64,000 nt of DNA from Solirubrobacteraceae bacterium. Lineage in GTDB: Bacteria; Actinomycetota; Thermoleophilia; Solirubrobacterales; Solirubrobacteraceae. The notes beneath the pieces are model-generated. The model was not told the origin of the DNA, made no database searches, and worked only from the letters and a program-made list of their open reading frames with translations. Where the stretch lies: assembly GCA_030447505.1 (NCBI GenBank), contig JAUJOT010000007.1, positions 62,001 through 126,000 on the forward strand, in the 5' to 3' direction. Numbering within the stretch: position 1 is the first letter of the stretch; the number at the start of each line of letters is the position of its first letter. Below are positions 3,705-59,909 of the stretch, piece by piece. The position numbers and the translations under genes were made by a program.

Positions 3705-4998
3705 TATCGGCGTCTCACCCCCGCGGTCGGGCTACGGGCGCGGCGCGCGGGTCCTCTCGATCGGGATCGCGACGACCGGCCTGGTCACGTTCGCGTACTT
3801 CGCGCTCGCCGCGCATGCGCTCGGGGACGTCGAGTACAAGCGCATCGCGCTCGTCTGGTCGATCATGTTCGTCGTCGCGTCGGTGATCTACCGCCCGATC
3901 GAGCAGCTGCTGTCGCGCACGATCGCCGACGGCCGCGCACGCGGCCACGGCGGCGGCCACAACCTGCGCGTCGCGCTGCTGATCCAGGCCGCGTTCGCGC
4001 TGACCTTCCTCGCCGTCGCGCTGGCTCTGCGCGACCTGCTGCAGAACGACCTCTTCGACGGCTCGGCGGCCCTGTACTGGGTGCTCGTCGTGGGCGTCCT
4101 CGCGTACGCGGCGAGCTACTTCGCGCGCGGCTTCCTGGCAGGCCACCAGCGCTTCGAGCTGTACGGCCTGCTGGTCTTCCTGGAGGCGATCTCGCGCGTC
4201 TGCTTCGCGCTGGCGGTCGTCGTCGGGGTCGCATCCGGGCAGTCGGCGGTGGCGCTCGGGATGGCCGCCGCGCCGCTTCTGTCGCTGCTCGTCGTGCCGT
4301 GGTTCTTCGCGCGCCGCGAGCAGCACCGGCCGCTCGACGTCAGCGCCGTCGAGAAGACCGGGGGCGGCCTGACACTGCGCCACGGCGTCCCGTTCGCGGC
4401 CGCGGTCTTCGGCGTCATGGTCGCCGAGCAGACGCTGCTCAACGCGGCGGTGCTGACCGTCGAGGGCACGTCTGCCGACGCCGCGCTGGCGGGCATCGTG
4501 TTCAGCGTGCTGCTCATCGCGCGGGCGCCGCTGCAGCTCTTCCAGGCCGTTCAGGGCTCGCTGCTGCCACACCTCGCGGGCCTGCACGCGACCGCGAGCG
4601 CGGCGGACTTCCGCCGCGCGATCCGCGTCACCGTGCTGGCGATCGGCGCCTTCGCGCTGGCCGTCGCGCTCGGGCTGTTCGCGGTCGGCCCGCCGGTCGT
4701 CGGCGGCCTCTTCGACATCGACCGCGACATCGGTCGCGGCGGCCTGGCGCTCGTCGGCCTCGGGATGGGCTTTCACCTCATCGCCGGGACCCTCAACCAG
4801 GCTGCGCTCGCGCGCGGGCAGGCGCTCGGCGCGGCGCTTGCATGGCTGTCGTGCGCAGGCGCCTTCGTGGCGTGGATGCTGAGCCCCGCGATCGACGACC
4901 AGCTGCTGCGCACGGAGGTCGGCTACTGCTGCGCGACGGCGCTGCTCGCCGTACTGCTCGCCGGGATCTATCGCGCCGGCGATCGCGCTACGGCGTAG
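3691..4998 (+). CDS. polysaccharide/lipid-linked sugar flippase (Wzx/MVF-like)
   Basis: 435 residues with about 12 hydrophobic spans spread over the whole length and short charged loops, as in the MOP exporter superfamily (Wzx, MurJ). The reading frame begins with TTG at 3691 (MSASSIGVSP) inside the end of the methyltransferase gene. It probably moves the lipid-linked product of the neighbouring glycosyltransferases across the membrane. The last 11 bp overlap the convergent DUF2149 gene. Confidence 0.8.
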   Translation: MSASSIGVSPPRSGYGRGARVLSIGIATTGLVTFAYFALAAHALGDVEYKRIALVWSIMFVVASVIYRPIEQLLSRTIADGRARGHGGGHNLRVALLIQAAFALTFLAVALALRDLLQNDLFDGSAALYWVLVVGVLAYAASYFARGFLAGHQRFELYGLLVFLEAISRVCFALAVVVGVASGQSAVALGMAAAPLLSLLVVPWFFARREQHRPLDVSAVEKTGGGLTLRHGVPFAAAVFGVMVAEQTLLNAAVLTVEGTSADAALAGIVFSVLLIARAPLQLFQAVQGSLLPHLAGLHATASAADFRRAIRVTVLAIGAFALAVALGLFAVGPPVVGGLFDIDRDIGRGGLALVGLGMGFHLIAGTLNQAALARGQALGAALAWLSCAGAFVAWMLSPAIDDQLLRTEVGYCCATALLAVLLAGIYRAGDRATA

Positions 4999-5344
4999 CG
5001 GTCGCCTTGCCTTCGACGTAGACGAGCCGGCCGTCGGCGAGGCGAAAGACCTCGCCGACGCGGCGACCGGAGCCGGTGATCGTCTTCTTGGAGAGCCGCA
5101 CCGTCCTGATCTCGTCGCCCTCCTTGACGATCAGCGTCTGGCTGTTGGGCTCTGTGCGCAGGATCGTGACGTTGGACTGCGTCAGCAGGTCGGTGAGGTT
5201 GACGGACTGCAGCGCGGCGAGCAGGAACGCGACGGCCAGCACGATCCCGAGGTCGAAGAGGTTGACCAGGCCGTCGAGCGGGTCGCCGCCGCGATCGCCG
5301 CGCCGCTGCGCCCGCGGCGTGACCCGGCTGCGCGCGATGCTCAC
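4988..5344 (-). CDS. DUF2149 protein, single-span ExbD/TolR-like partner
   Basis: 118 residues. A basic N-terminus leads to DPLDGLVNLFDLGIVLAVAF, one membrane helix with an Asp at its entry, as in ExbD/TolR/MotB. A periplasmic domain follows, ending with the DUF2149 hallmark GEVFRLADGRLVYVEG. DUF2149 proteins are usually found beside MotA/TolQ/ExbB proteins, and here the ExbB-like gene overlaps it by 4 bp. I infer that it is the small subunit of a proton-driven membrane complex; the role is unproven. Confidence 0.75.
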   Translation of the reverse strand: MSIARSRVTPRAQRRGDRGGDPLDGLVNLFDLGIVLAVAFLLAALQSVNLTDLLTQSNVTILRTEPNSQTLIVKEGDEIRTVRLSKKTITGSGRRVGEVFRLADGRLVYVEGKATATP

Positions 5345-5979
5345 CGCTCCTCCCGCGGTTCCAGCGCGGCCACGACGTACTCGAGGTCGGACAGGTCCTG
5401 CGCGTACAGGCGGTCGCGCACAAGCGAGATCGAGAACGCGACAGCGCCGATCAGCAGGCCCAGGACGGTGATGCTGAACGCCACGCGCAGGTTCTCCGAC
5501 AGCTGCGCGACGTTGCCGTCGGCGAGCCCCTCGAGCGCCGGCGACAGCGGGATCAGCGTCCCCATCAGGCCCAGCGCGGGACCGAAGCGCACGAGCATAC
5601 GGCTGCGCTCGAGCTTGCGCAGCGAGCCGAGGTCGAAGTCCGCCAGCGCCTTCGCGCGGCGCTCGTCGGCGCCTGGCTGCCCGTGCTGCGCGACGACCGT
5701 CGACAGCGTGTCCGCCATCTGCGCGCTCGACGCCAGCGGCATCAGCGCGCGCTCGGCCTCGGACAGGTCGCTGGACTCGAGCGCCGCCCGCGCGCTGGCG
5801 GTGGCCTGCGCGACGCGCTCGCCACCGTCGCTGCGGCCGCGCCGCAGCAGCTCGACGACGAACGCGCCGAGGTCCAGCAGCAGGAAGGCCAGCGCGGCGA
5901 TCGCGGCCGCGAAGACCGGGATCCGCAACGCGTTCGCGAGTTCGAAGAGGAGCTCCTCGATACCGGAGACGGCGATCAT
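5341..5979 (-). CDS. MotA/TolQ/ExbB proton-channel family protein
   Basis: 212 residues. There is one N-terminal span (about 18-40), a cytoplasmic Ala/Glu-rich segment, then RFGPALGLMGTLIPLSPALEGL and VAFSITVLGLLIGAVAFSIS, which match the conserved GxxxTLxPL and second/third helices of ExbB/TolQ. Both ends overlap neighbours by 4 bp (ATGA at 5976-5979 and 5341-5344), so it is tightly coupled to the PKD gene and the DUF2149 gene. Inferred to conduct protons and drive the partner protein. Confidence 0.85.
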   Translation of the reverse strand: MIAVSGIEELLFELANALRIPVFAAAIAALAFLLLDLGAFVVELLRRGRSDGGERVAQATASARAALESSDLSEAERALMPLASSAQMADTLSTVVAQHGQPGADERRAKALADFDLGSLRKLERSRMLVRFGPALGLMGTLIPLSPALEGLADGNVAQLSENLRVAFSITVLGLLIGAVAFSISLVRDRLYAQDLSDLEYVVAALEPREER

Positions 5980-7097
5980 GCGACGCGCAGTCTGACGCCT
6001 CGGCGCTCGCGCAGCGCGCCCAGCGAGAAGAAGGTCATGGCGAGCAGCCCGGTGAGGGGGATCTCGATGCCGCCGCCATCGCGGTCGTCGCCCGCCCTGC
6101 GCCTCCCGCCCGCGGGCGCACCGGCGGCCGTGCCGGTCGGCAGCTTGCTGATCGTCGTGCCGGGATCGTCGATGAGCAGGCCCGAGATCGTGACGCCGAA
6201 CGGCTTCTTCGGCTTCGGCTTCGGCTTGGGCTTGGGCTTGGGCTTCGGGGCGGCCGCCGGGCCCGACGTCCCGGACCGGTCGCTGCCCGCCCCGCTGCCG
6301 CCACCCGAGCCGCCCTGGCCGCCGGCACCTGCGCCGCCCCCCGATCCGGGCACCTGCGAGCTGCCGGCCCCGCTGCCGGGCGCCTGCGTGGTCGGTTGCG
6401 GCGGCGGGTCGCCGACGCTGACGTCGACGTCGTCGTGGCCGACGCAGGACGTCGCGCAGCGCCCGGTCGATCCGCCCGTCCCGGTGACCGTGACGCGCGG
6501 CGCGTAGTCGCCGCCAAGCTCGTAGACGTGCGTGACGACGCGGCCGCTCGCCGGCGCGCTGCCGTCGTCGAAGTCCCACTCGTAGCTGAGCTGCGCGCCG
6601 GGCGGCGAGAAGCGCACGCGGGCGCTGAGCGTGACGCTCTGGCTCGCCTCGATTCGGCTGCGGTCGACGGACGCGACGACGGTGACGTCGCCGCCGTTGA
6701 CGCTGACCTGTAGCGGCCCGGTGTCGGCCGTCGCGGAGATCGTGGTGGCGCCGTGCCTGAAGCGCGTCGTCGTCCCGTCGTCGGTGATGCGTTCGCCGAG
6801 CTCGCGCTGCGTGAGCGCGACCGAGCCGGCGTCCTCGCGCGTGATGTTCACGAACGTGACCGCGCTGGGATCGATCCCGTGCTGCTCGAGCAGCGACCGG
6901 ATCGAGAGGCCTCCCGCGAAGCGCGCGCCCGAGATCTCGATCGGCCGCGGCTCCGTGTTGAGGAAGAGCGTCACGCCGGGGCCGGCGGCCTGCGCCGCAG
7001 CCGGCAGCAGCCCGGCGAGCAGGCCGGCCAGCAGGAGCCCTGTGAGGATCGCGCGCAGGTCGCGGAAGCTACCTGACGCGGTCGCGCGAGTCGTCAG
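5976..7097 (-). CDS. secreted PKD-domain protein with (Lys-Pro)6 linker and C-terminal anchor; CTG start inferred
   Basis: 373 residues if started at CTG 7097. A signal peptide (RAILTGLLLAGLLAGLLP, then AAAQA) is in frame but has no ATG, GTG or TTG before it. The CTG overlaps the rpe stop as CTGA, matching the ATGA overlaps of this operon. The mature protein has an N-terminal domain, a PKD domain (LSYEWDFDDGS, about 165-230), a Gly/Ser-rich spacer, six Lys-Pro repeats, and a C-terminal hydrophobic anchor ending in Arg-rich residues. The Lys-Pro spacer recalls TonB. Without the CTG, the first usual start is GTG 6974, which removes the signal peptide. Sits upstream of the ExbB-like and DUF2149 genes. 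Confidence 0.75.
   Translation of the reverse strand: MTTRATASGSFRDLRAILTGLLLAGLLAGLLPAAAQAAGPGVTLFLNTEPRPIEISGARFAGGLSIRSLLEQHGIDPSAVTFVNITREDAGSVALTQRELGERITDDGTTTRFRHGATTISATADTGPLQVSVNGGDVTVVASVDRSRIEASQSVTLSARVRFSPPGAQLSYEWDFDDGSAPASGRVVTHVYELGGDYAPRVTVTGTGGSTGRCATSCVGHDDVDVSVGDPPPQPTTQAPGSGAGSSQVPGSGGGAGAGGQGGSGGGSGAGSDRSGTSGPAAAPKPKPKPKPKPKPKKPFGVTISGLLIDDPGTTISKLPTGTAAGAPAGGRRRAGDDRDGGGIEIPLTGLLAMTFFSLGALRERRGVRLRVA
6211..6246. repeat. six tandem 6-bp units encoding (Lys-Pro)6
   Basis: Six perfect or near-perfect copies of ggctt(c/g) encode the Lys-Pro linker of the PKD protein on the minus strand. Copy-number change by slippage would alter the linker by whole Lys-Pro units without breaking the frame. 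Confidence 0.8.
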
Positions 7098-50913: not shown

Positions 50914-52102
50914 CGCCTCATCGCAGTGTTCGTCGTATCGCCCCTCTGTCCTATCGTCGCACCGTCGGCGAACGCCCGCTCGACGAGCTCGCGCTCGTGT
51001 GCGATCGGCGCGTAGTCGGCGTAGATGAGCGTCGTCTTGTGGTCGCGATGGCCCATCCATTCCTGAAGCGTCCGCATCGGCACACCGGCGGCCGCCATCC
51101 GGGTGCGGAACGTATGCCGGAGGTCATGGAAGCGCACGTCGCGAATCCGGCAGTCTTCGCCGCGGCCTTGTAGCGCTTCAGCAGCCGCGAGCGCTCCAGC
51201 GGCGTGCCGAGGTGCGGGTGGCCGAAGACGAGGTCGTCGTCGGCGCCGTACGTGGTGGCGCGGTGATGGGCGTCCAGCTCGGCCGCGACGCGGTCGGCAA
51301 GCGGGACCGAGCGCGACGACCGGTGGGACTTGGGCGTCCCGAACTCGCCGCGTACGAAGCTGCGGCGCACGCGGAGCCGGCCGGCGAGCCAGTCGACGTC
51401 GCGCCAGCGCAACGCGAGCAGTTCGCCCTGGCGCAGGCCGGTCATCGCCGCGGTCAGCCACATCACGGTCGACGCGGCCCAGGTCGGCGTCCGGCGCGGC
51501 GTGCAGCAGCGCCTCGAGCTCGGGCTGATCGAGAAGCGGATGTCGGCATCGGTCGCGCTCGCGCGCGGCTTGTCGACGAGCTTGCACGGGTTCGCCACGT
51601 TCCAGCCGCGGCGCCGGCCGAACTCGAAGATCGAGTGCAGCAGCCCGAGGTAGTTGAGGATGCTCTTGGACGCACGGCCCTCCCGGCGCTTGGCTGCGAC
51701 GAACGCCTCGACGTCGCGCGGCTCGATCCGGTGAAGCGGCTTGGCGCCGAAGAACGGCGCGAGGTGGACGCGCAGGTGTGACTCGTAATCCATGAGCGTC
51801 GATCGCTTGCGCCCGACGCCGGCGAGGTGGTCGAGGTAGCGGCGGCCTGCGTCCTCAAGCGAGGGGCGCTCGTGCGCGGAAGTCATCGGGCGCTCTGCCT
51901 CGATGCGGCGTCGAAGCTCCGCTTCGGCCTGTGCCTTGGTCATGCCGCGGCGCTCTCCCGCCCGGCGCTTCTCGCCGAGCTTGCGTTTGACGACAGCGTC
52001 GCCGGCGCGCCACTGGCCGTACCACGCCTCGCGGCCGGCGGCGTCGACGCGCACGAACAGCGATCCGGTTTCGTACGAGCGCTTGGCCATGTCGGTGATC
52101 AT
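50910..52102 (-). pseudogene. int: tyrosine recombinase/integrase with three frameshifts
   Basis: Starts at ATG 52102 (overlapping the excisionase stop). The N-terminal arm-binding and SAM-like domain is intact to RASATDADIRF at about 51540. A shift leads to LDQPELEALLHAAPDADLG. A second, near 51470, restores the first frame (AAMTGLRQGELLALRWRD, catalytic Arg). A third near 51150 leads to FHDLRHTFRTRM and MGHRDHKTTLIYADY (HxxR, His and Tyr). All catalytic residues survive but lie in different frames. At least one shift looks like a lost C in a run. It presumably catalysed integration at tRNA-His. Confidence 0.85.
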
Positions 52103-52299
52103 CGCGCGTTCTCCGGCGGCCGCCGCTCGATCTGCGCCATCCACGCCTCGGTCGCGGTGCGGCGATAGCGGACGTAGCGGCCGAGGCGGAGGTGCGGGAT
52201 CGCGTTGCGGCGCGTCTCGGCACAGACCCAGGCGCGGGTGACGCGCATGAGGTCTGCGACGTCGTCGGCGGTCAGCAGCTTGTCGTCGGCCGTAGTCAT
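52099..52299 (-). CDS. xis: excisionase / MerR-like helix-turn-helix protein
   Basis: 66 residues from ATG 52299. LLTADDVADLMRVTRAWVCA is a winged-helix excisionase fold, followed by the wing LRLGRYVRYRRTATEAW. Overlaps the coupling-protein stop and the integrase start by 4 bp each. Intact, unlike its neighbours. Confidence 0.85.
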   Translation of the reverse strand: MTTADDKLLTADDVADLMRVTRAWVCAETRRNAIPHLRLGRYVRYRRTATEAWMAQIERRPPENAR

Positions 52300-53717
52300 A
52301 GGCGGATCGGTCCTTCGGGCTCGGGCTCCTCGGGCACCGGCTCGGGCGGGGCGAGGACGTCTTGTCCAGCGGGCGGTGCGTCGTGGCGTGGTGGCGGCGC
52401 GATCTGGACCTTCTGTCCTTTGCAGTCGCCGATGACGAAGCACATGCCGGGCGCCGGGCGCCGGACCTCGTTGGGGTCGACTCGCAGCTGGTGCTGGCTG
52501 CGGGTCGAGCCGACGTCGGTTGACAGCCCGCGCTCCTGCTGCAGGCTCCATTCGGTCGCCATCCGCGTGCCGGCGGCCTTGACGATCGGCTCGGGCTCGG
52601 GGACCGCGTGCAGGATGATCGTGTGGGCGGAGTTGAGGATCCGCGCGGATGCCTCCGGTCCGCCCAGCCCGTCAAAGCGCTGCGGGGCGAGGACAACGGC
52701 GGCGCCGTAGGAGCGGACCACTTCGACCATCCGCGCCGTGCGTTCGCCGTCGGCGATCGCGGAGAACTCGTCGACGATCAGCAGGACCTGTCGGCGACCG
52801 GGGTTGCCCGGCGAGGTACTGCTTGAAGTCCTCGACGAGCAGCCGGGCGACCTTGCCGGTCTCTTCGGTGTAGAGCACCTCGTTGAGCAGCGACGTAGGC
52901 GCAGTCGGCATCCTCGTACGCCCACGAGCCGTCGAGCTGACCGGCGGCGGCGTCGAAGAAAGAGCGGTAGCGCTGGCGGCAGGCGTCGATGTGCTCGTCG
53001 CGGAACCGCTCGATCTCGCCGGCACGGGCATGGCCGGCCCACGAGGTCATGAGCTCTGTCTTGTCGAGTCGGCGTAGCAGCTCGTCCGAGCAGCGCGGCG
53101 GGCCGCCCGGGCCGGTGCAGGCGAGCCGGACGAGGTTGACCGAGAGGTCGCGGAGTAGGCGCCCCCGCCCTCGTCGGCCCAGTCGATGAGCTGGACGAGG
53201 CGGTTGGCGATCTCGCGGCCCGTGCCGCGCCATGCGTCGTAGCGCTCCTGCGGGAACAACCTCACGCTGCGGCCAGCGCGACGCATGCTCTGCGCGAACG
53301 CGGCCCGGGTGGCTGGGTCGCCCTTGGCGTCGATCACGACGATCTGCCACTCGCTCGTGGTCGCGACACCGTAGGCGAGGCGGCCAAGCGTGACGGTCTT
53401 GCCCGCGCCCGGCGCGCCGATCACCAGCAGCATGCGGCCGAGGCGCGAGCGGCATCAGCACCGGCCGCGCTTGACCTTCAGCACGGCGTCGCCGGCGACG
53501 TGACGACCGAGTTCGAAGACGCGCTCGCGCGTGCGCGGGTGGGGAGCCCGGCGGCGCGGCGGGCCTTGCGCTCAGCCCGCTCACGGGAGTGCTCGGCGCG
53601 GCGCTCGTCGCGCTCGCGCAGTTCCTCGACTGACCGTCGGCGAAAGGTGGCGATGGCCAGCGCGACGGCGAAGCACAGCGGCGCCGCGAGCAGCCACCAA
53701 GTCCGGATGTCGGCCAC
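52296..53717 (-). pseudogene. TraG/VirD4-like coupling ATPase, multiply frameshifted
   Basis: Begins at GTG 53717 with a membrane helix (WWLLAAPLCFAVALAIATF) and an Arg/Glu coiled segment. Recognisable pieces follow in different frames: MLLVIGAPGAGKTVTLGRLA (Walker A, about 53433), LSVNLVRLACTGPGGPPRC, RYRSFFDAAAGQLDGSWAYE, LLNEVLYTEETGKVARLLVE, and VLLIVDEFSAIADGERTARM (Walker B, about 52790). The last is followed by an intact C-terminus. At least four single-base shifts are needed. It would pump DNA during conjugal transfer. Confidence 0.75.
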
Positions 53718-54627
53718 GCCGCCTGAAGCGATTCCCCGGGGTGCATGAACATCCCATGCCGGTGGCCGGCCCGCTGCCCGCGTTGCATCTCAAGCTCGAT
53801 CCGCGCCCACCACAGCCACACTCATCCGGCTCCTGCAATGCGAGCGCGGCGAAGGCAAGCGTCGCCCGCCGGGCGATCCGCGCAAGCCCGATCCCGACGA
53901 GCAACGCCGGCGCGCTGAAGAACAGGCCGGCCGCCATCGCGAGCATGCCGAGATATGGCGTCGGGTCGGCATCGAGGACCTGGACGCGTTCGCGACGATC
54001 TCGGCCGCGAGCCGCTGAAGGGCGCGGCGCGGCGCGGGCGCGGCGAAGTACGTGACCGAGCCGTAGCGGGCGACGAGCTCGCGCATGATCTGCTCGATCC
54101 GGGCTCGGCGCTTGAGCGTCAGCTCGACCTCGACGGCGACCTCGCGGCCATCGATCACGACGAGCCGTCCGGCCGGTGGCGCTGACGCCGCCCGGCTCGC
54201 TCGCGAGCTCGCGGTGCAGCTCGCGCTCACACACCCACTCCGCGCCCGGGTGCCGGTCGAGGACGTGCAGCCGCACGTCGGTGACGGCCGCGATGTGCGC
54301 GAGCATCCCGCCGTTCGGGCGCCAGACCGAGTAGTCGATGCCGGCCAGCGACTGCCCGCGCCGAGTAAGCCACACGAACACCGGCTCGCCGACGAGCAGC
54401 GCGCGGCCACGAGCCCAGCCCGCGCGCTCCCATCGCGACCGGAGCCAGCGCGCCGCGTGCGGGGAGCAGCGCATCATGCGAGCGAGCTGCGTCACCGTGT
54501 ATCGCTCGCCGACGACGCGCAGCAGCTCGAGGTCGCGGCCCGAGCAGCGCAGCGTGCCGGCGTCCGAACGCCGCGCGCGAGCCGGGCGTTGCGGCCCGGC
54601 GTGATCGCTTGTCGAACTCAAAGTCAT
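53716..54627 (-). pseudogene. replication-relaxation-like protein, frameshifted, plus a hydrophobic segment
   Basis: From ATG 54627, the winged-helix part reads RDLELLRVVGERYTVTQLAR, then VFVWLTRRGQSLAGIDYSVW, typical of the replication-relaxation superfamily. After about 54190 the sense sequence moves frame (RLVVIDGREVAVEVELTLKR, ELVARYGSVTYFAAP). Near 53990 it returns to the first frame with a hydrophobic region (LFFSAPALLVGIGLARIARR), and shifts again near 53820 (WARIELEMQRGQRAGHRHGM). The last part may be a separate small membrane protein gene. Confidence 0.6.
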
Positions 54628-55114
54628 ACGCCTCGGACAAGAGGGAGAACTCCGGGAACTGGCCCCCACCAATTCCGCCTCCGCGCGCGCCCACCGGCGC
54701 CGCCGCTCCCGGCCTCGTCCTGCACGCGCTTCTCGCTGAAAACGTAGACACCTCACTTATGAAGAGCCACGAGCCCGAGAACTGGCCCCCTTGCCCGACC
54801 CTCCACGAGCCTCGACACATGCGCCCCCGCCGCCCTCCCTGCCGTTCCTCGTTCGCCCGCCCCGGCCTCCTTGCGATGTCCAGCCCACCACGCCTGCCGG
54901 CCGGTCCGTCCCCTCAGTCGAAGCGAGGCGAGAGGGGCCGGACCGGCCGGTGTGGCGCGCCTGCTGGCCATACCGCGCGCCGACGGCCGCCTGCGGGAGC
55001 AGCATGCGACCTCGCAACCGATGCGGGGCGGTAGACCAGTCGCTGCGTGCAATCTCGCTTGTCCGCAAGCCTGGACCTGTCGGATGTTCGCGCCGCGGGG
55101 GCGCGATGAGGTGC
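54628..55114. other. 487-bp gene-free stretch with repeated aactggccccc
   Basis: No convincing reading frame on either strand. The word aactggccccc occurs twice (near 54656 and 54780), and a palindrome-like gagaactccgggaactgg lies beside the first copy. The position directly upstream of the replication-relaxation gene would suit an origin or promoter, but nothing proves it. Confidence 0.4.
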
Positions 55115-56907
55115 CTACTGTTCGGCGCTCACGGCGCCGCGCAGCTCCTGCATCAGATGCTCGAGCCCTCCCTCCGCGAGAGGCCCGATCCGGCGACGAC
55201 CGCGATCGAGGGTGTCCCGGACCTCACGGCGGACAACGTGCTCTGCCAGCGCGTTCATCCTCGCGCGCACCCCTTCGGCGGCGTCCAGGAGTTCCGTCGG
55301 GAGGAGGTCAAGCGGAGTTAGGTCGGAAATCGAGAGAGGCAAGCCCGCCTCCGTGGCCTTCTCGATGCGATTTCGCACCGGGCCGATCGCGAGGTAGTTG
55401 ACCATAAAGTCGGGGCTTAGCACCGGCGAATCCGGTACGTCTGCCGCCGGCAGATGTTCCGAGATCCTCCTCCGGACCTTGTACGCGGTTCGATCGAGCG
55501 TTAGCCACCAAGTCGTGTAGCCGAACGGTGAATCGCGCTCACGACGGCGGCGCCGCACGACGCCGAGGTAGTTCTCCACGTCGTGGTCGACCAGCCGGGC
55601 GGTTGTGTTCGCATCACCCACGTAGACCCCCTGCCCTCGGCGACGCTCGTGCGCCTCGTGCCAGACCTCCTGAACAGCCCCTCGGAGCTCCACAGATGCG
55701 CGGTCCGCGTCATCTTCCAAACTGCTCACGTGGATTCCGTAGTTCTCGCGTAGGTACTCGGCGATGTCGTCCTGTGGCCGAGCGCTCCCGCGGAAGCGCT
55801 CCAACCAGGTGGGAAGCTCGCCACGCGCCCGACCCGTGAGAGCGAAGGCCGCCGACAGGAACGGCACGCGTCCCTCCCACTGTGTCCCGGCGTGTGTCGT
55901 GTACGCAAGGCAACGCCGCATGTGCGAGTCGAGTTCCTCGAGCACGCCGAGCGTAATGAAGATATTCAGTCCTGCCTGAGCAGCTGCACCAAGGAGATTC
56001 GTGTAGAGCCTCCGCGTCGAGTCATCGACAAGCTCCTCCGCGAATAGAGGCAGCGCGACCGTGGTATCAAGCCATACTTCCCCCGTCGCAAACATTTTTA
56101 CGACCGCGGCCTGGACGTCCGGCGTCTCGCGCATGAACGCGAACAGCGTGTATGCGTCTGCGAAGCTTCGGAGGTACTTTTGAATCTGCGTGCTCGGCTC
56201 AGTGAGCGCCGACTGGGCCGAGGCAACCAGAACCTGATGGATCCTGTTGTCGACGGTCGCAGGATTCTCGCCAATCGTGCGTGCTACCGATCGGGCGACG
56301 TCAACGAGGTCGGGATATTCGACGTCTGTGGTTCCGCGCTGCACCGCGGCCGCAAATACCTCTCCGCGTTGCCAGAGCACCTGGTCGATCACGAGCCTCG
56401 TGCCCTGGGCGAGTTGATCCGCGTCGACGGGCAGCTGAGACGGAACCAGACTGCAGGCTTCCACCACGAGCTGGCGTAGCGCTACTCGTAGATCGTTGTC
56501 GCCGATTTCAACGTCGGCGAGTCGATCCCGGATCCGGACGCGCTCGTCATGGGTGAGGCAGAACTCGTCTTCCTTACGGTAGAATCGCAAGACGCGCTTA
56601 TTGAGGTGGGACAGCGCCGAATCTGTATACCGGTCGGCCAGATGCTCAGGATGGGCGGGAAGCAGTTGACGAACGCGCTCCCGGATGACATCCCGCGATA
56701 GGCGATTCTCGGGGTGGGTGTCGCGCAGAACCGACCGAACCAACGCCTCAAAGCACAAACGGGTGAGCCCCTTTTCGCGAGTATCGTCTTCCCATTGCAG
56801 GGCGAGATACACACAGCCGGCCCGCGCCTCAGACGATGTCAGCGCCTGCGCCTTGTGCTCGATCACGCCCGCGCTTGCGAGGAACGGATCGACGATCTCG
56901 ACGGCTA

Positions 56908-56936
56908 GTGGACCCATCCGCAAGTTCGTCGGGTTA
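56908..56936. repeat. IS630 left inverted repeat
   Basis: Begins gtggacccatccg; pairs with 58117-58145 at 23 of 29 positions. Confidence 0.85.
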
Positions 56937-56974
56937 TTAAAGGAGGATGCGGGCCCGGTGTCGAACGTGAGATC

Positions 56975-58119
56975 GTGGCCCGGACCAGCCGCTACCCGAT
57001 CGAGCTTGGCGAGGCGGATCGTGATGAGCTTGCGCGGCGCGCGGGGACGCCGACGCTCGCGTATCGCGATGTTCAGCGCGCGCGGATGATCTTGTACGCA
57101 GCCGAGGGTCTGGCCGACAAGGAGATCGCGGTGCGCTGCGATTGTCATCCGGATGTCGTCAGCAAGTGGCGACGAAGATTCTGTGAGCAGGGCATCGAGG
57201 GGCTGACCGACAAACCACGCGCGGGCCGCCCGCGCCGTTTTCCCCGCAGCAGGTCGCCGACGTCGTCGCCGTCGCGTGCGAGCTGCCGGTCAAGCACGAC
57301 CGGCCGCTGGGACGCTTCTCGCGCACTGAGCTGCATCGCCTCGTCATCGAGCAGGGCGTCACCGAGGCATCGGCGACGACGATCTGGCGCTGGCTGCATG
57401 ACCGCTCTTTAAAGCCGTGGCAGCAGCGCTCGTGGATCTTTCCGCGCGACCCCAACTTCCAGCCGAAGGCGGGCCGCGTCCTGGATCTGTACGCGCGCCG
57501 CTTCGAAGGCCGGCTGCTGCATCCCGGCGAGTACGTCATCTGCGCCGACGAGAAGTCTCAGCTGCAAGCGCTCGCACGCCGCCACGAGACGGTTGCACCA
57601 ACGCCCGAGCACCCCGCGCTGGTTGAGTTCGAGTACAAGCGCGGCGGCACACTGGCCTACCTCGCCGCGTGGGACGTCCATCACGCCAGACTCTTCGGGC
57701 GCTGCGAGGCGAAGACGGGGATCGAACCGTTCAGACGGCTCGTCGAGCAGGTCATGAGCAGCGAGCCCTACAAGTCGGCCAAGACCGTGTTCTGGATCGT
57801 CGACAACGGCTCAAGCCATTCCGGCAAGACCTCGATCGCCCGCATGCAGGACACCTACGCCAACGCACGCCTGATCCACCTGCCGGTCCATGCCTCGTGG
57901 CTGAACCAGATCGAGATCTACTTCTCGATCCTGCAACGCAAGGCGCTGACACCCAACGACTTCGCAGACCTCGACGCGCTTGCCGCGCGCATCACGGCCT
58001 TCGAGGAGCACTACCGCCAGATCGCCAAGCCCTTCGATTGGACCTTCACCCGCGCCAAGCTCGACGACCTCCTGGCCCGCCTCGCCGACCGCGAGCCGCA
58101 CCTCAAGCTCGCGGCCTAA
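56975..58119 (+). CDS. IS630 transposase, two frames joined by a putative -1 frameshift
   Basis: From GTG 56975 the helix-turn-helix part (DKEIAVRCDCHPDVVSKWRR) ends in AGRPRRF. At cgt ttt ccc c (about 57235-57245), a -1 shift leads into SPQQVADVVAVACELPVKHD and a clean frame to 58119. The DDE triad is complete: ICADEKSQLQAL, FWIVDNGSSH and SWLNQIEIYFS. The joined protein is about 381 residues. IS630 relatives are known to use programmed frameshifting; a plain mutation is the alternative. The stop lies inside the right inverted repeat. Confidence 0.8.
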
Positions 58120-58145
58120 CCCAACGAACTAACGGACACGTCCAC
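58117..58145. repeat. IS630 right inverted repeat
   Basis: Inverted partner of 56908-56936, ending gtccac before the TA duplication. Confidence 0.85.
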
Positions 58146-58577
58146 TAGTGCCTCTGCTGCGGCCTCCCGCGTGCGAGAGGAGTTCACCCGTTCCAAGAGC
58201 CAGTTCTGATCGCAGATGTCGACGTAGACCTGATGTTCCTTCCGGATCGTCTTGACCTGCTCGTCGCCCGCCGCCCCAATGACCTGGTTCGTCGCATAAA
58301 CGAGCGACCGCGCCTCCGGAAAGTTCTTCTTCATGGAGGCCACGGTTTCGTTGATCTTGGCGGCCCAGTCCTGTCGTACCGAGTACTGAATGACGACGTC
58401 CTCGTCGCCAGCCGGCGACCAGAGCTTCGCGTCGCGGCCACGGTCGCCAGACGGCGCGGCCGTGGTTCGGAGGCCCGGGTAGTCGTCGATCAGGAATTCC
58501 GACGCGAGTTCCTCGAAGCGTTCCCACTGCGCGGGCCGAAGTTGCTCCAGAGCGAGACGAAACCTGTTCCGGTTCAC

Positions 58578-58946
58578 GGCGCGAAGCTACCACGGCGACC
58601 ACGGTCGACGGCGCCGCTCTCCTTCGATTGGATTCTGCGGCTCAGCCCAACGTATTTCCCCCGCTCCGGCGCCGAGAGCGGCGTGTCAGCGAACGAAATT
58701 TGGACCGCAAAGGACCCCGTGGGCAGCGGTGACACGACCTCCGCAGCAGAAAGGCCTGCAAACGCGACCTGTCTCGCAACTGGAAGGCAGGATTTGAACC
58801 CTGCGACCGCCATCCCCCGAGGGATGCGCACGGACGACAGGCCGCGACACGAATTGATGCCCTATTGGTGCCTTGGCCACTCCCCGACAGCCTTCGCCGC
58901 GGCCCAACCAGACCAGAAAGCAGCGTAACTGCAGGTACTTCCCTCA
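58578..58946. other. gene-free right end of the element with a tRNA T-arm-like remnant
   Basis: No convincing gene. On the minus strand, around 58785-58815, the sequence gcagggttcaaatcctgc forms a perfect tRNA T-arm preceded by a variable-loop-like ggtc, but no anticodon arm is present. It may be a fragment left by an earlier integration. Confidence 0.5.
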
Positions 58947-58990
58947 GGGTGAGCGACGGGACTTGAACCCGCGACCGCCTGGACCACAAC
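58947..58990. repeat. right attachment-site repeat inside tRNA-His
   Basis: The 44-bp partner of 45828-45871. It runs from the 3' end of tRNA-His to its anticodon loop. Confidence 0.85.
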
Positions 58991-59021
58991 CAGGAGCTCT
59001 ACCAGCTGAGCTACGCCCACC
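58948..59021 (-). tRNA. tRNA-His (anticodon GTG)
   Basis: Full cloverleaf with anticodon loop TTGTGGT, an extra G at -1 opposite discriminator C (the histidine identity pair), acceptor gtgggcg with cgctcac, and an intact T-arm. Its 3' half was supplied by the integrated element. Confidence 0.95.
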
Positions 59022-59070
59022 GTGCGGCGTTGAATCTAGCAGCGAGGATCGTGCCTGGGATGATCCGGAC

Positions 59071-59601
59071 ATGAGCTTCGAACTCGGCGATCTCGTCCCG
59101 GCCTTCGCGCTGCCCGACACGGAGGGCCGCACCCACAGCCTGCCGGTCGACCCGGCGCCACCGGCGACAGTGCTCGTCGTGAGCTGCAACCACTGCCCGT
59201 ACGTCATCGCCTGGAACCCCCGGCTGCGCGTCGTCGCCGAGGACTACGCTCCGCGCGACGTGCGCTTTCTCGCGATCAACGCCAACGACGCGTCGCGCTA
59301 CCCGGCCGACTCGCCCGACGCGATGGCGCGCTTCGTGCGCGACCAGTGCTGGCCGATCCCCTACCTCTACGACGAGACCCAGGAGGTGGCGCACGCGCTC
59401 GACGCGCAGGTGACACCCCACGTCTTCGTGCTCGACGGCGACCAGCGCCTGCGCTACCGCGGCGCTCCAGACGCCGACCACCGGGACCCGTCACAGGACG
59501 CCCGCTACCTGCGCGACGCGCTCGACGCCGTCCTCGCAGGCCACGAGCCCGGGACCGCCGACACCCGCCCGCGCGGGTGCTCGGTGAAGTGGAAGGCCTG
59601 A
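59071..59601 (+). CDS. thioredoxin-fold redoxin (AhpC/TSA-like)
   Basis: 176 residues. FELGDLVPAFALPDTEGRTH opens a redoxin domain with VVSCNHCPYVIAWNPRL, where CNHC replaces the usual WCxxC, followed by FLAINANDASRYPADSPDAM and the cis-Pro TPHVFVLDGDQRLRYRG. Likely a cytosolic thiol reductase or peroxidase (no signal peptide). Starts 49 bp from tRNA-His, outside the element. Confidence 0.88.
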   Translation: MSFELGDLVPAFALPDTEGRTHSLPVDPAPPATVLVVSCNHCPYVIAWNPRLRVVAEDYAPRDVRFLAINANDASRYPADSPDAMARFVRDQCWPIPYLYDETQEVAHALDAQVTPHVFVLDGDQRLRYRGAPDADHRDPSQDARYLRDALDAVLAGHEPGTADTRPRGCSVKWKA

Positions 59602-59608
59602 CAGGAAC

Positions 59609-59701
59609 GTGAAGCGAAAGCTCCTGATCGGGCTGGCCGTCGCCGCGCTGGTCGCCGCGGCGGCTGCGCTGCACCGGCTGGTCACGCCCGTGCCGTCGTA
59701 G
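59609..59701 (+). CDS. 30-residue hydrophobic peptide
   Basis: GTG 59609 gives MKRKLLIGLAVAALVAAAAA and ends LVTPVPS. It is a single-span or secreted peptide 7 bp after the redoxin gene. agga lies too close (2 nt) to the start, so translation is uncertain. Confidence 0.35.
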   Translation: MKRKLLIGLAVAALVAAAAALHRLVTPVPS

Positions 59702-59734
59702 CACGGCCCGCTCGCCAGCAGGCGGTTGCAGGAG

Positions 59735-59808
59735 CGCCCCGGGCTGGATTCGAACCAGCGACCTGCGGATTAGAAGTCCGCTGCTCTATCCAGCTGAGCT
59801 ACCGGGGC
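59735..59808 (-). tRNA. tRNA-Arg (anticodon TCT)
   Basis: 74-nt cloverleaf. Acceptor gccccgg pairs with ccggggc, anticodon loop CTTCTAA, T-loop ttcgaat. CCA is not encoded. Confidence 0.95.
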
Positions 59809-59835
59809 CCGCGCCGGACCTTTGCGTCCGGCCAG

Positions 59836-59909
59836 TCGGGATGGCCGGATTCGAACCGACGACCCCCGCGTCCCAAACGCGGTGCTCTACCAGGCTGAGC
59901 TACATCCCG
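59836..59909 (-). tRNA. tRNA-Pro (anticodon TGG)
   Basis: 74-nt cloverleaf with cgggatg/catcccg acceptor, anticodon loop TTTGGGA and discriminator A. CCA is not encoded. Separated from tRNA-Arg by 27 bp. Confidence 0.95.

What the first reader, a model, noticed from the sequence alone, without database searches (positions are those of the whole stretch)
4988..7097. Candidate TonB/ExbB/ExbD-like force-transducing complex in an actinobacterium
Three genes chained by 4-bp overlaps encode an ExbB/TolQ-type channel, a single-span DUF2149 protein with an Asp at its membrane entry (like ExbD/MotB), and a secreted PKD protein with a (Lys-Pro)6 spacer next to a C-terminal membrane anchor. TonB uses Glu-Pro/Lys-Pro spacers to cross the periplasm. 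A Gram-positive-type envelope has no outer-membrane receptor to drive, so the target of such a machine would be new. Seen: the motifs, spacer and overlaps. Known: ExbB/DUF2149 association. Inferred: that the three form one complex.
Basis: partly seen in the sequence, partly recalled or inferred. Interest (0 to 1): 0.75.

Follow-up and report, generated by a model that had tools for sequence, protein, structure and literature searches.

The report
Proton-driven motor serving actinobacterial nutrient importers
A bacterium with no outer membrane carries a three-gene, TonB-like proton-driven motor, and its relatives build the same motor into the operons that import scarce metals and metal cofactors, which suggests that single-membrane bacteria may also spend membrane energy outside the cell to take up nutrients.

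Summary
The three genes are real: a secreted PKD protein with a C-terminal membrane anchor, an ExbB-family channel, and DUF2149. The last two joints are 4-bp overlaps. The motor looks intact: the pore threonines matching E. coli ExbB T148 and T181 are invariant in 93 aligned relatives, and DUF2149 places an invariant Asp where ExbD has Asp25. The genome has no ExbD, no TonB-dependent receptor and no BamA. The PKD partner lies next to ExbB in about half of 97 distinct relatives. In 151 genomes its N-domain co-occurs with DUF2149 (21 of 23 genomes, P = 4e-11). The anchor carries a Gly...Glu motif at the cytoplasmic end in 39 of 41 PKD partners and in 8 of 9 unrelated toroid partners. In relatives the trio or its partner sits in operons for tungstate, haem-type, Zn/Mn and cobalt-type importers. 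It works like a TonB system but is not one: topology is inverted, the His dock is absent, and the Lys-Pro run is limited to the closest relatives. I read it as a proton-driven accessory that helps a capture protein hand ligand to an importer; the mechanical step is inferred. In the window's genus the trio is an orphan, substrate unknown.

The parts
5976..7097 (-). PKD partner gene: signal helix, N-terminal domain, PKD domain, Pro-rich spacer, C-terminal membrane anchor; true start between 7097 and about 7056
6687..6989 (-). N-terminal extracytoplasmic domain (residues 37-137), the domain specific to this partner family
   Evidence: AlphaFold pLDDT mostly above 85; profile A7 finds it in 23 of 151 genomes of the order
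6453..6686 (-). PKD domain (residues 138-215)
   Evidence: Pfam; structural match to collagenase PKD domains, Z 12.2, rmsd 1.6, 85 aligned
6210..6245 (-). (Lys-Pro)6 spacer
   Evidence: sequence; KP run of 4 or more only here and in the closest relative L034
5982..6056 (-). C-terminal membrane anchor (residues 348-372) with conserved Gly360 and Glu364 (Glu codon 6006-6008)
   Evidence: helix predicted; Gly360 invariant and Glu364 at least 90% in 46 relatives; motif test
5341..5979 (-). ExbB/TolQ/MotA-family channel; Thr141 (5557-5559) and Thr171 (5467-5469) match E. coli ExbB Thr148 and Thr181
   Evidence: Pfam; alignment with 93 rows plus E. coli ExbB
4988..5344 (-). DUF2149 protein, single transmembrane helix (residues 22-47) with Asp31 (5252-5254), ExbD/MotB-like
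   Evidence: Pfam; model; profile alignment places Asp31 on ExbD Asp25

Best explanation
The trio is a proton-motive-force-driven motor with a new kind of transducer. ExbB (probably a pentamer) and DUF2149 (probably a dimer, in the place of ExbD) form the motor. The PKD protein is secreted, captures or positions a ligand outside the membrane, and is tied to the motor by its C-terminal helix. Proton flow moves the DUF2149 axle, and this pulls or distorts the partner so that ligand is released or handed to a membrane importer (ABC or ECF), as TonB does for an outer-membrane receptor and as HmuUV is suspected to do for HmuS. Shown: gene linkage, intact motor residues, absence of an outer-membrane target, a shared anchor motif on unrelated ectodomains, and importer context in relatives. 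Inferred: physical assembly, the force-driven hand-over, and the substrate at this locus, where no importer is adjacent.
For: Partner next to ExbB with a 4-bp overlap in 29 of 47 pairs, and ExbB-DUF2149 overlap in 75 of 97. Of 97 distinct ExbB-DUF2149 loci, 53 have a PKD-type, 13 a toroid and 3 a CobN/HmuS-type partner. N-domain and DUF2149 co-occur in 21 of 23 genomes (expected about 7), P 4e-11; one of the two exceptions has a DUF2149 found by my own profile and the other hit runs into a contig end. Genomes whose ExbB-DUF2149 pair is unlinked carry the partner elsewhere in an HtaA/FecCD operon, still with the Gly...Glu tail (L255). Anchor motif in 39/41 PKD-type and 8/9 toroid-type partners against at most 3/16 other C-anchored proteins, one of which is itself a truncated partner. 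Motor residues T148/T181/R200 equivalents are 100% in 93 rows. Asp31 aligns with ExbD Asp25. No ExbD in 61 family genomes; a single MotA/ExbB in this genome; no BamA in 41 genomes and no plug domain here. Importer operons: TupABC in 22 of 97 loci, HtaA+FecCD, ECF with CbiQ and DUF4430, anchored-repeat Zn/Mn ABC. Precedent: HmuU=ExbB and HmuV=DUF2149 with the HmuS de-chelatase, which has a C-terminal membrane helix (PMC12583661, PMC13227078).
Against: No importer is adjacent in the window genus, and TupA is absent from all 7 genomes searched, so the role at this locus rests on relatives. Complex formation was not modelled (no multimer tool). The DUF2149/ExbD link is a short profile match (hhalign probability 45%). 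The anchor motif is short and the control set small. Roughly a quarter of the ExbB-DUF2149 loci show no partner within the stretch read, some of them at contig edges.
Confidence: 0.52

Rival explanations
1. A TolA-like wall machine: the motor moves the PKD protein to act on peptidoglycan or surface polymers; the neighbouring importers are incidental or share regulation.
For: PKD domains are often adhesive; the partner is long with a Pro-rich spacer; the window trio sits by a polysaccharide flippase-like gene and no importer.
Against: Four importer types recur next to the trio or its partner; the flippase-like gene is convergent and not shared with more distant relatives.
Confidence: 0.18
2. 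A sensor: proton flux through ExbB-DUF2149 reads the state of the loaded capture protein and signals inward, without doing work on it.
For: No force-bearing receptor is known in a single-membrane envelope; the partner tail ends just inside the membrane.
Against: No conserved signalling gene was recognised near the trios; the motor residues match force-producing 5:2 motors.
Confidence: 0.12
3. The PKD protein is just a co-transcribed, membrane-anchored surface protein and does not bind the motor.
For: No structure of the complex; a C-terminal helix plus basic tail also occurs in sorting signals.
Against: The conserved part is the Glu on the cytoplasmic side, shared by unrelated ectodomains; no NCBIfam sorting-signal model matched; the tail is kept even when the gene is unlinked.
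Confidence: 0.13
4. A vestigial, non-functional Ton remnant, as proposed for incomplete Ton systems in monoderms (PMC12204202).
For: No receptor and no ExbD in the genome.
Against: Pore threonines and arginine invariant in 93 diverged proteins; operon integrity kept across families; no sign of decay except one interrupted partner (L036).
Confidence: 0.04

Closest known systems
HmuSTUV of Bacteroidota (HmuU ExbB-like, HmuV DUF2149, HmuS CobN-like haem de-chelatase)
   Same: Same ExbB-DUF2149 motor pair with an extracytoplasmic protein that has a C-terminal membrane helix; nutrient acquisition (PMC12583661, PMC13227078). CobN-type loci were also found in Actinomycetota here (L082-L084)
   Different: Partner here is an N-domain/PKD protein, not a chelatase; no HmuT, HmuY or HmuR; single-membrane envelope
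TonB-ExbB-ExbD
   Same: ExbB-family channel with pore threonines; single-span Asp protein; Pro-rich spacer on a third membrane-anchored protein
   Different: Anchor is C-terminal and out-to-in; no SHLS/His motif; ExbB TonB-dock residues S34, W38, P190 not conserved; no receptor or outer membrane
vWA force transducers next to TolQ/TolR-like motors (PMC12204202)
   Same: A non-TonB ectodomain placed on a 5:2-type motor
   Different: Those have a TonB-like tethering helix with the SHLS motif, or insert into the pore; described in diderms
Corynebacterial-type HtaA-HmuTUV haem uptake
   Same: HtaA domain and FecCD/PBP2/ABC importer genes occur next to the trio in relatives
   Different: Corynebacterial systems are not known to me to use an ExbB motor

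Membership tests
MotA/TolQ/ExbB family | Pfam PF01618 above curated cut-off | tested here: met
   31.9 bits against 22.9
MotA/TolQ/ExbB family | Pore threonines (E. coli ExbB T148, T181) | tested here: met
   100% of 93 aligned rows
MotA/TolQ/ExbB family | Pentamer around a dimer | not testable with these tools
   no multimer prediction available
DUF2149 (HmuV) | Pfam PF09919 above curated cut-off | tested here: met
   76.4 bits against 27.1
ExbD/TolR | Pfam PF02472 match | tested here: not met
   no PF02472 match listed for any of 86 DUF2149 rows at E 0.1; PF02472 search finds nothing in this genome
ExbD/TolR | Proton-binding Asp at the start of the single transmembrane helix | tested here: met
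   Asp31 aligns with ExbD Asp25, P 2e-4, probability 45%
ExbD/TolR | ExbD-type periplasmic fold | tested here: inconclusive
   DUF2149 model pTM 0.35
TonB/TolA | N-terminal transmembrane anchor with SHLS/His motif | tested here: not met
   anchor is C-terminal, residues 348-372, with no His; motif described in PMC12215075
TonB/TolA | Matching dock on ExbB (S34, W38, P190) | tested here: not met
   replaced by Leu, aliphatic and Val/Ile/Leu
TonB/TolA | X-Pro spacer | tested here: inconclusive
   (KP)6 here, but only Pro-rich in most relatives
TonB system | TonB-dependent receptor in the genome | tested here: not met
   no plug domain in G000; 1 of 41 family genomes, a 79% complete, 6% contaminated assembly
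Hmu haem system | CobN-like HmuS partner | tested here: not met
   partner has only PKD domains by Pfam
Oxidored_molyb (molybdopterin-binding) fold | N-domain homologous to PF00174 | tested here: inconclusive
   hhalign P 0.002, probability 14%; Pfam no hit

The most novel reading that the evidence does not exclude
Single-membrane bacteria possess a general proton-driven machine acting outside the membrane, in which one ExbB-DUF2149 motor powers interchangeable, C-terminally anchored capture proteins (PKD, intrinsic-factor-like toroid, chelatase) that feed different metal and cofactor importers.
Probability: 0.4. Interest if true: 0.85.

Novelty: new variant of a known kind. Interest (0 to 1): 0.68.

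Why it matters
Uptake across a single membrane is thought to be powered by the importer alone. A conserved proton-driven motor built into tungstate, haem-type, Zn/Mn and cobalt-type importer operons would mean an extra energised step on the outside. It would also give a role to ExbB-like genes in monoderms that have been called vestigial, and offer a cleaner setting to study how HmuUV works with HmuS.

Tried and rejected
Riboswitches near the loci: none in 20 loci, and the window gave only tRNAs. Viral contigs: no relatives. Fold search of the PKD model: only the PKD domain was matched; the N-domain was not tested alone and no further prediction job was available. DUF4430 as the N-domain: no similarity. 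My first run of that comparison used some wrong-strand sequences and was repeated. TupA in the window genus: absent. The FecCD genes of this genome lie in an unlinked cluster that looks like siderophore synthesis and uptake (my reading of the sequences). One row of A7 was mistyped by a few residues; it served only as one of 15 rows in the profile. The first background test for the anchor motif was contaminated by ExbB and partners and was redone.

Full report
What is there. On the minus strand downstream of rpe lie three genes: a secreted protein with an N-terminal domain, a PKD domain, a Lys-Pro spacer and a C-terminal helix; an ExbB/TolQ/MotA-family channel; and a DUF2149 protein. The joints PKD-ExbB (5976-5979) and ExbB-DUF2149 (5341-5344) are 4-bp overlaps. 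The reported start at 7097 is a CTG. The closest relative (L034) starts at a TTG where the window reads TTC at 7067, so the true start is open.

Is the motor intact? ExbB aligns with E. coli ExbB. Thr148, Thr181 and Arg200 equivalents are invariant in 93 aligned rows. In the Ton and Tol structures the pore threonines face the ExbD/TolR aspartate, and ExbB Arg200 bonds to ExbD (PMC12215075). DUF2149 keeps an invariant Asp31 that profile alignment places on ExbD Asp25, though the match is short (P 2e-4, probability 45%), and its model is one helix (22-47) plus a small strand domain of low confidence. The family has no ExbD in 61 genomes, and this genome has one single MotA/ExbB protein, so DUF2149 is the only visible axle.

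Is there an outer-membrane target? No. BamA is absent from 41 family genomes, and the TonB-receptor plug is absent here; the one hit among 41 is in a 79% complete, 6% contaminated assembly.

Do the three belong together? In 40 regions of the order and 80 named loci, the gene before exbB is usually a secreted, C-terminally anchored protein. Among 97 distinct ExbB-DUF2149 loci I labelled 53 PKD-type, 13 toroid, 3 CobN/HmuT and 28 without a visible partner, some of these at contig edges. In 151 genomes the N-domain occurs in 23, of which 21 have DUF2149 by Pfam (46 of 151 overall), Fisher P 4e-11. One exception has a DUF2149 by my own profile, and the other hit runs into a contig end next to an HtaA gene. 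Eighteen of 24 N-domain hits lie within about 6 kb of a DUF2149 gene. In genomes where the ExbB-DUF2149 pair stands alone by a metH-like gene (G095, G098), the partner sits elsewhere, in an HtaA/FecCD operon.

The anchor. Gly360 is invariant and Glu364 at least 90% conserved in 46 partners. A Gly-x(1-4)-Glu at the cytoplasmic end of the last helix is found in 39 of 41 PKD-type and 8 of 9 toroid-type partners (Prenyltransferase toroid), proteins with unrelated ectodomains. Among 16 other C-anchored proteins in the same loci 3 match, one of which is a truncated partner. One exception, L036, has a TAG stop at the Glu codon. TonB instead uses Ser16/His20 of an N-terminal helix against ExbB Ser34, Trp38 and Pro190 (PMC12215075). 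None of these is kept here, while ExbB TM1 has an always acidic residue at 36 and invariant Gly38 and Glu43. I infer a different dock at the same membrane level.

What does it serve? In relatives the trio or its partner sits with TupABC genes (22 of 97 loci; TupA by NCBIfam E 4e-25, below that model's strict cut-off), with periplasmic-binding/FecCD/ABC genes and the haem-binding HtaA domain, with an ECF set (CbiQ, ECF ATPase, S component) plus DUF4430 and a toroid protein, and, for the partner alone, with an anchored-repeat Zn/Mn ABC transporter (TIGR03770 and TIGR03772 over cut-off). Deep-branching members of the phylum have the CobN-HmuT-ExbB-DUF2149 form, in at least one case beside a FeoB-like gene. 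On an ExbB tree the labels are strongly clustered (25 changes against 59 in shuffles), and the window clade falls in a broad group with Tup-linked trios, though that fork is only 88/88. In the window genus no importer is adjacent and TupA is absent.

Comparison. HmuSTUV shares the motor pair and a partner with a C-terminal membrane helix; its motor role is itself only suspected (PMC12583661, PMC13227078). A survey of force transducers called incomplete Ton systems in monoderms likely non-functional (PMC12204202); the conservation here argues otherwise for this family. A full-text search for ExbB, tungstate and Actinobacteria together found nothing, and DUF2149 occurs in five papers, so I found no earlier description, within an open-access library only.

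Limits. No complex was modelled, no experiment exists, the N-domain fold is unresolved (weak hint of the molybdopterin-binding fold, P 0.002), and substrate assignments are by family annotation of neighbours. The mechanical hand-over is an inference by analogy with TonB.

Noticed in passing
window 7056-7097: PKD gene lacks a standard start: TTC stands where the relative L034 has TTG, and the only nearby candidates are CTG codons; two distant relatives (L037, L038) also lack an in-frame ATG/GTG/TTG before the signal peptide.
   Followed up: partly
L036:5431-5482 (same locus as L103): The conserved anchor Glu codon is a TAG stop, with the rest of the tail still readable after it; exbB then starts 26 bp downstream of the stop.
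   Followed up: partly
L041, L042, L046, L049, L051-L053, L055, L057-L060, L063, L064: A clade of Solirubrobacterales has the ExbB-DUF2149 pair without partner, mostly in a conserved neighbourhood with a gene that looks like B12-dependent methionine synthase; no riboswitch found in five of them.
   Followed up: partly
L152:5950-7276: Two ExbB-DUF2149 pairs in tandem after an ECF set and a toroid protein in Patulibacter.
   Followed up: no
L068, L070, L146, L161: ECF importer operons that encode a DUF4430 lipoprotein and an alpha-alpha toroid protein, the two folds of vertebrate intrinsic factor/transcobalamin (from memory), on separate chains, with the motor.
   Followed up: partly
L253:5095-11196: PKD partner inside an anchored-repeat Zn/Mn ABC operon while the only DUF2149 found in that genome is on another contig: possible use of one motor in trans.
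   Followed up: partly
L099, L100: Divergent partners with only a weak profile match but the same anchor ending (GLSGAVREWINP, GLTGGVREWMNP).
   Followed up: no
window 50951-59909: Integrase-like gene and a transposase-like fragment near a tRNA cluster: probable integrated element (my reading, no family search).
   Followed up: no
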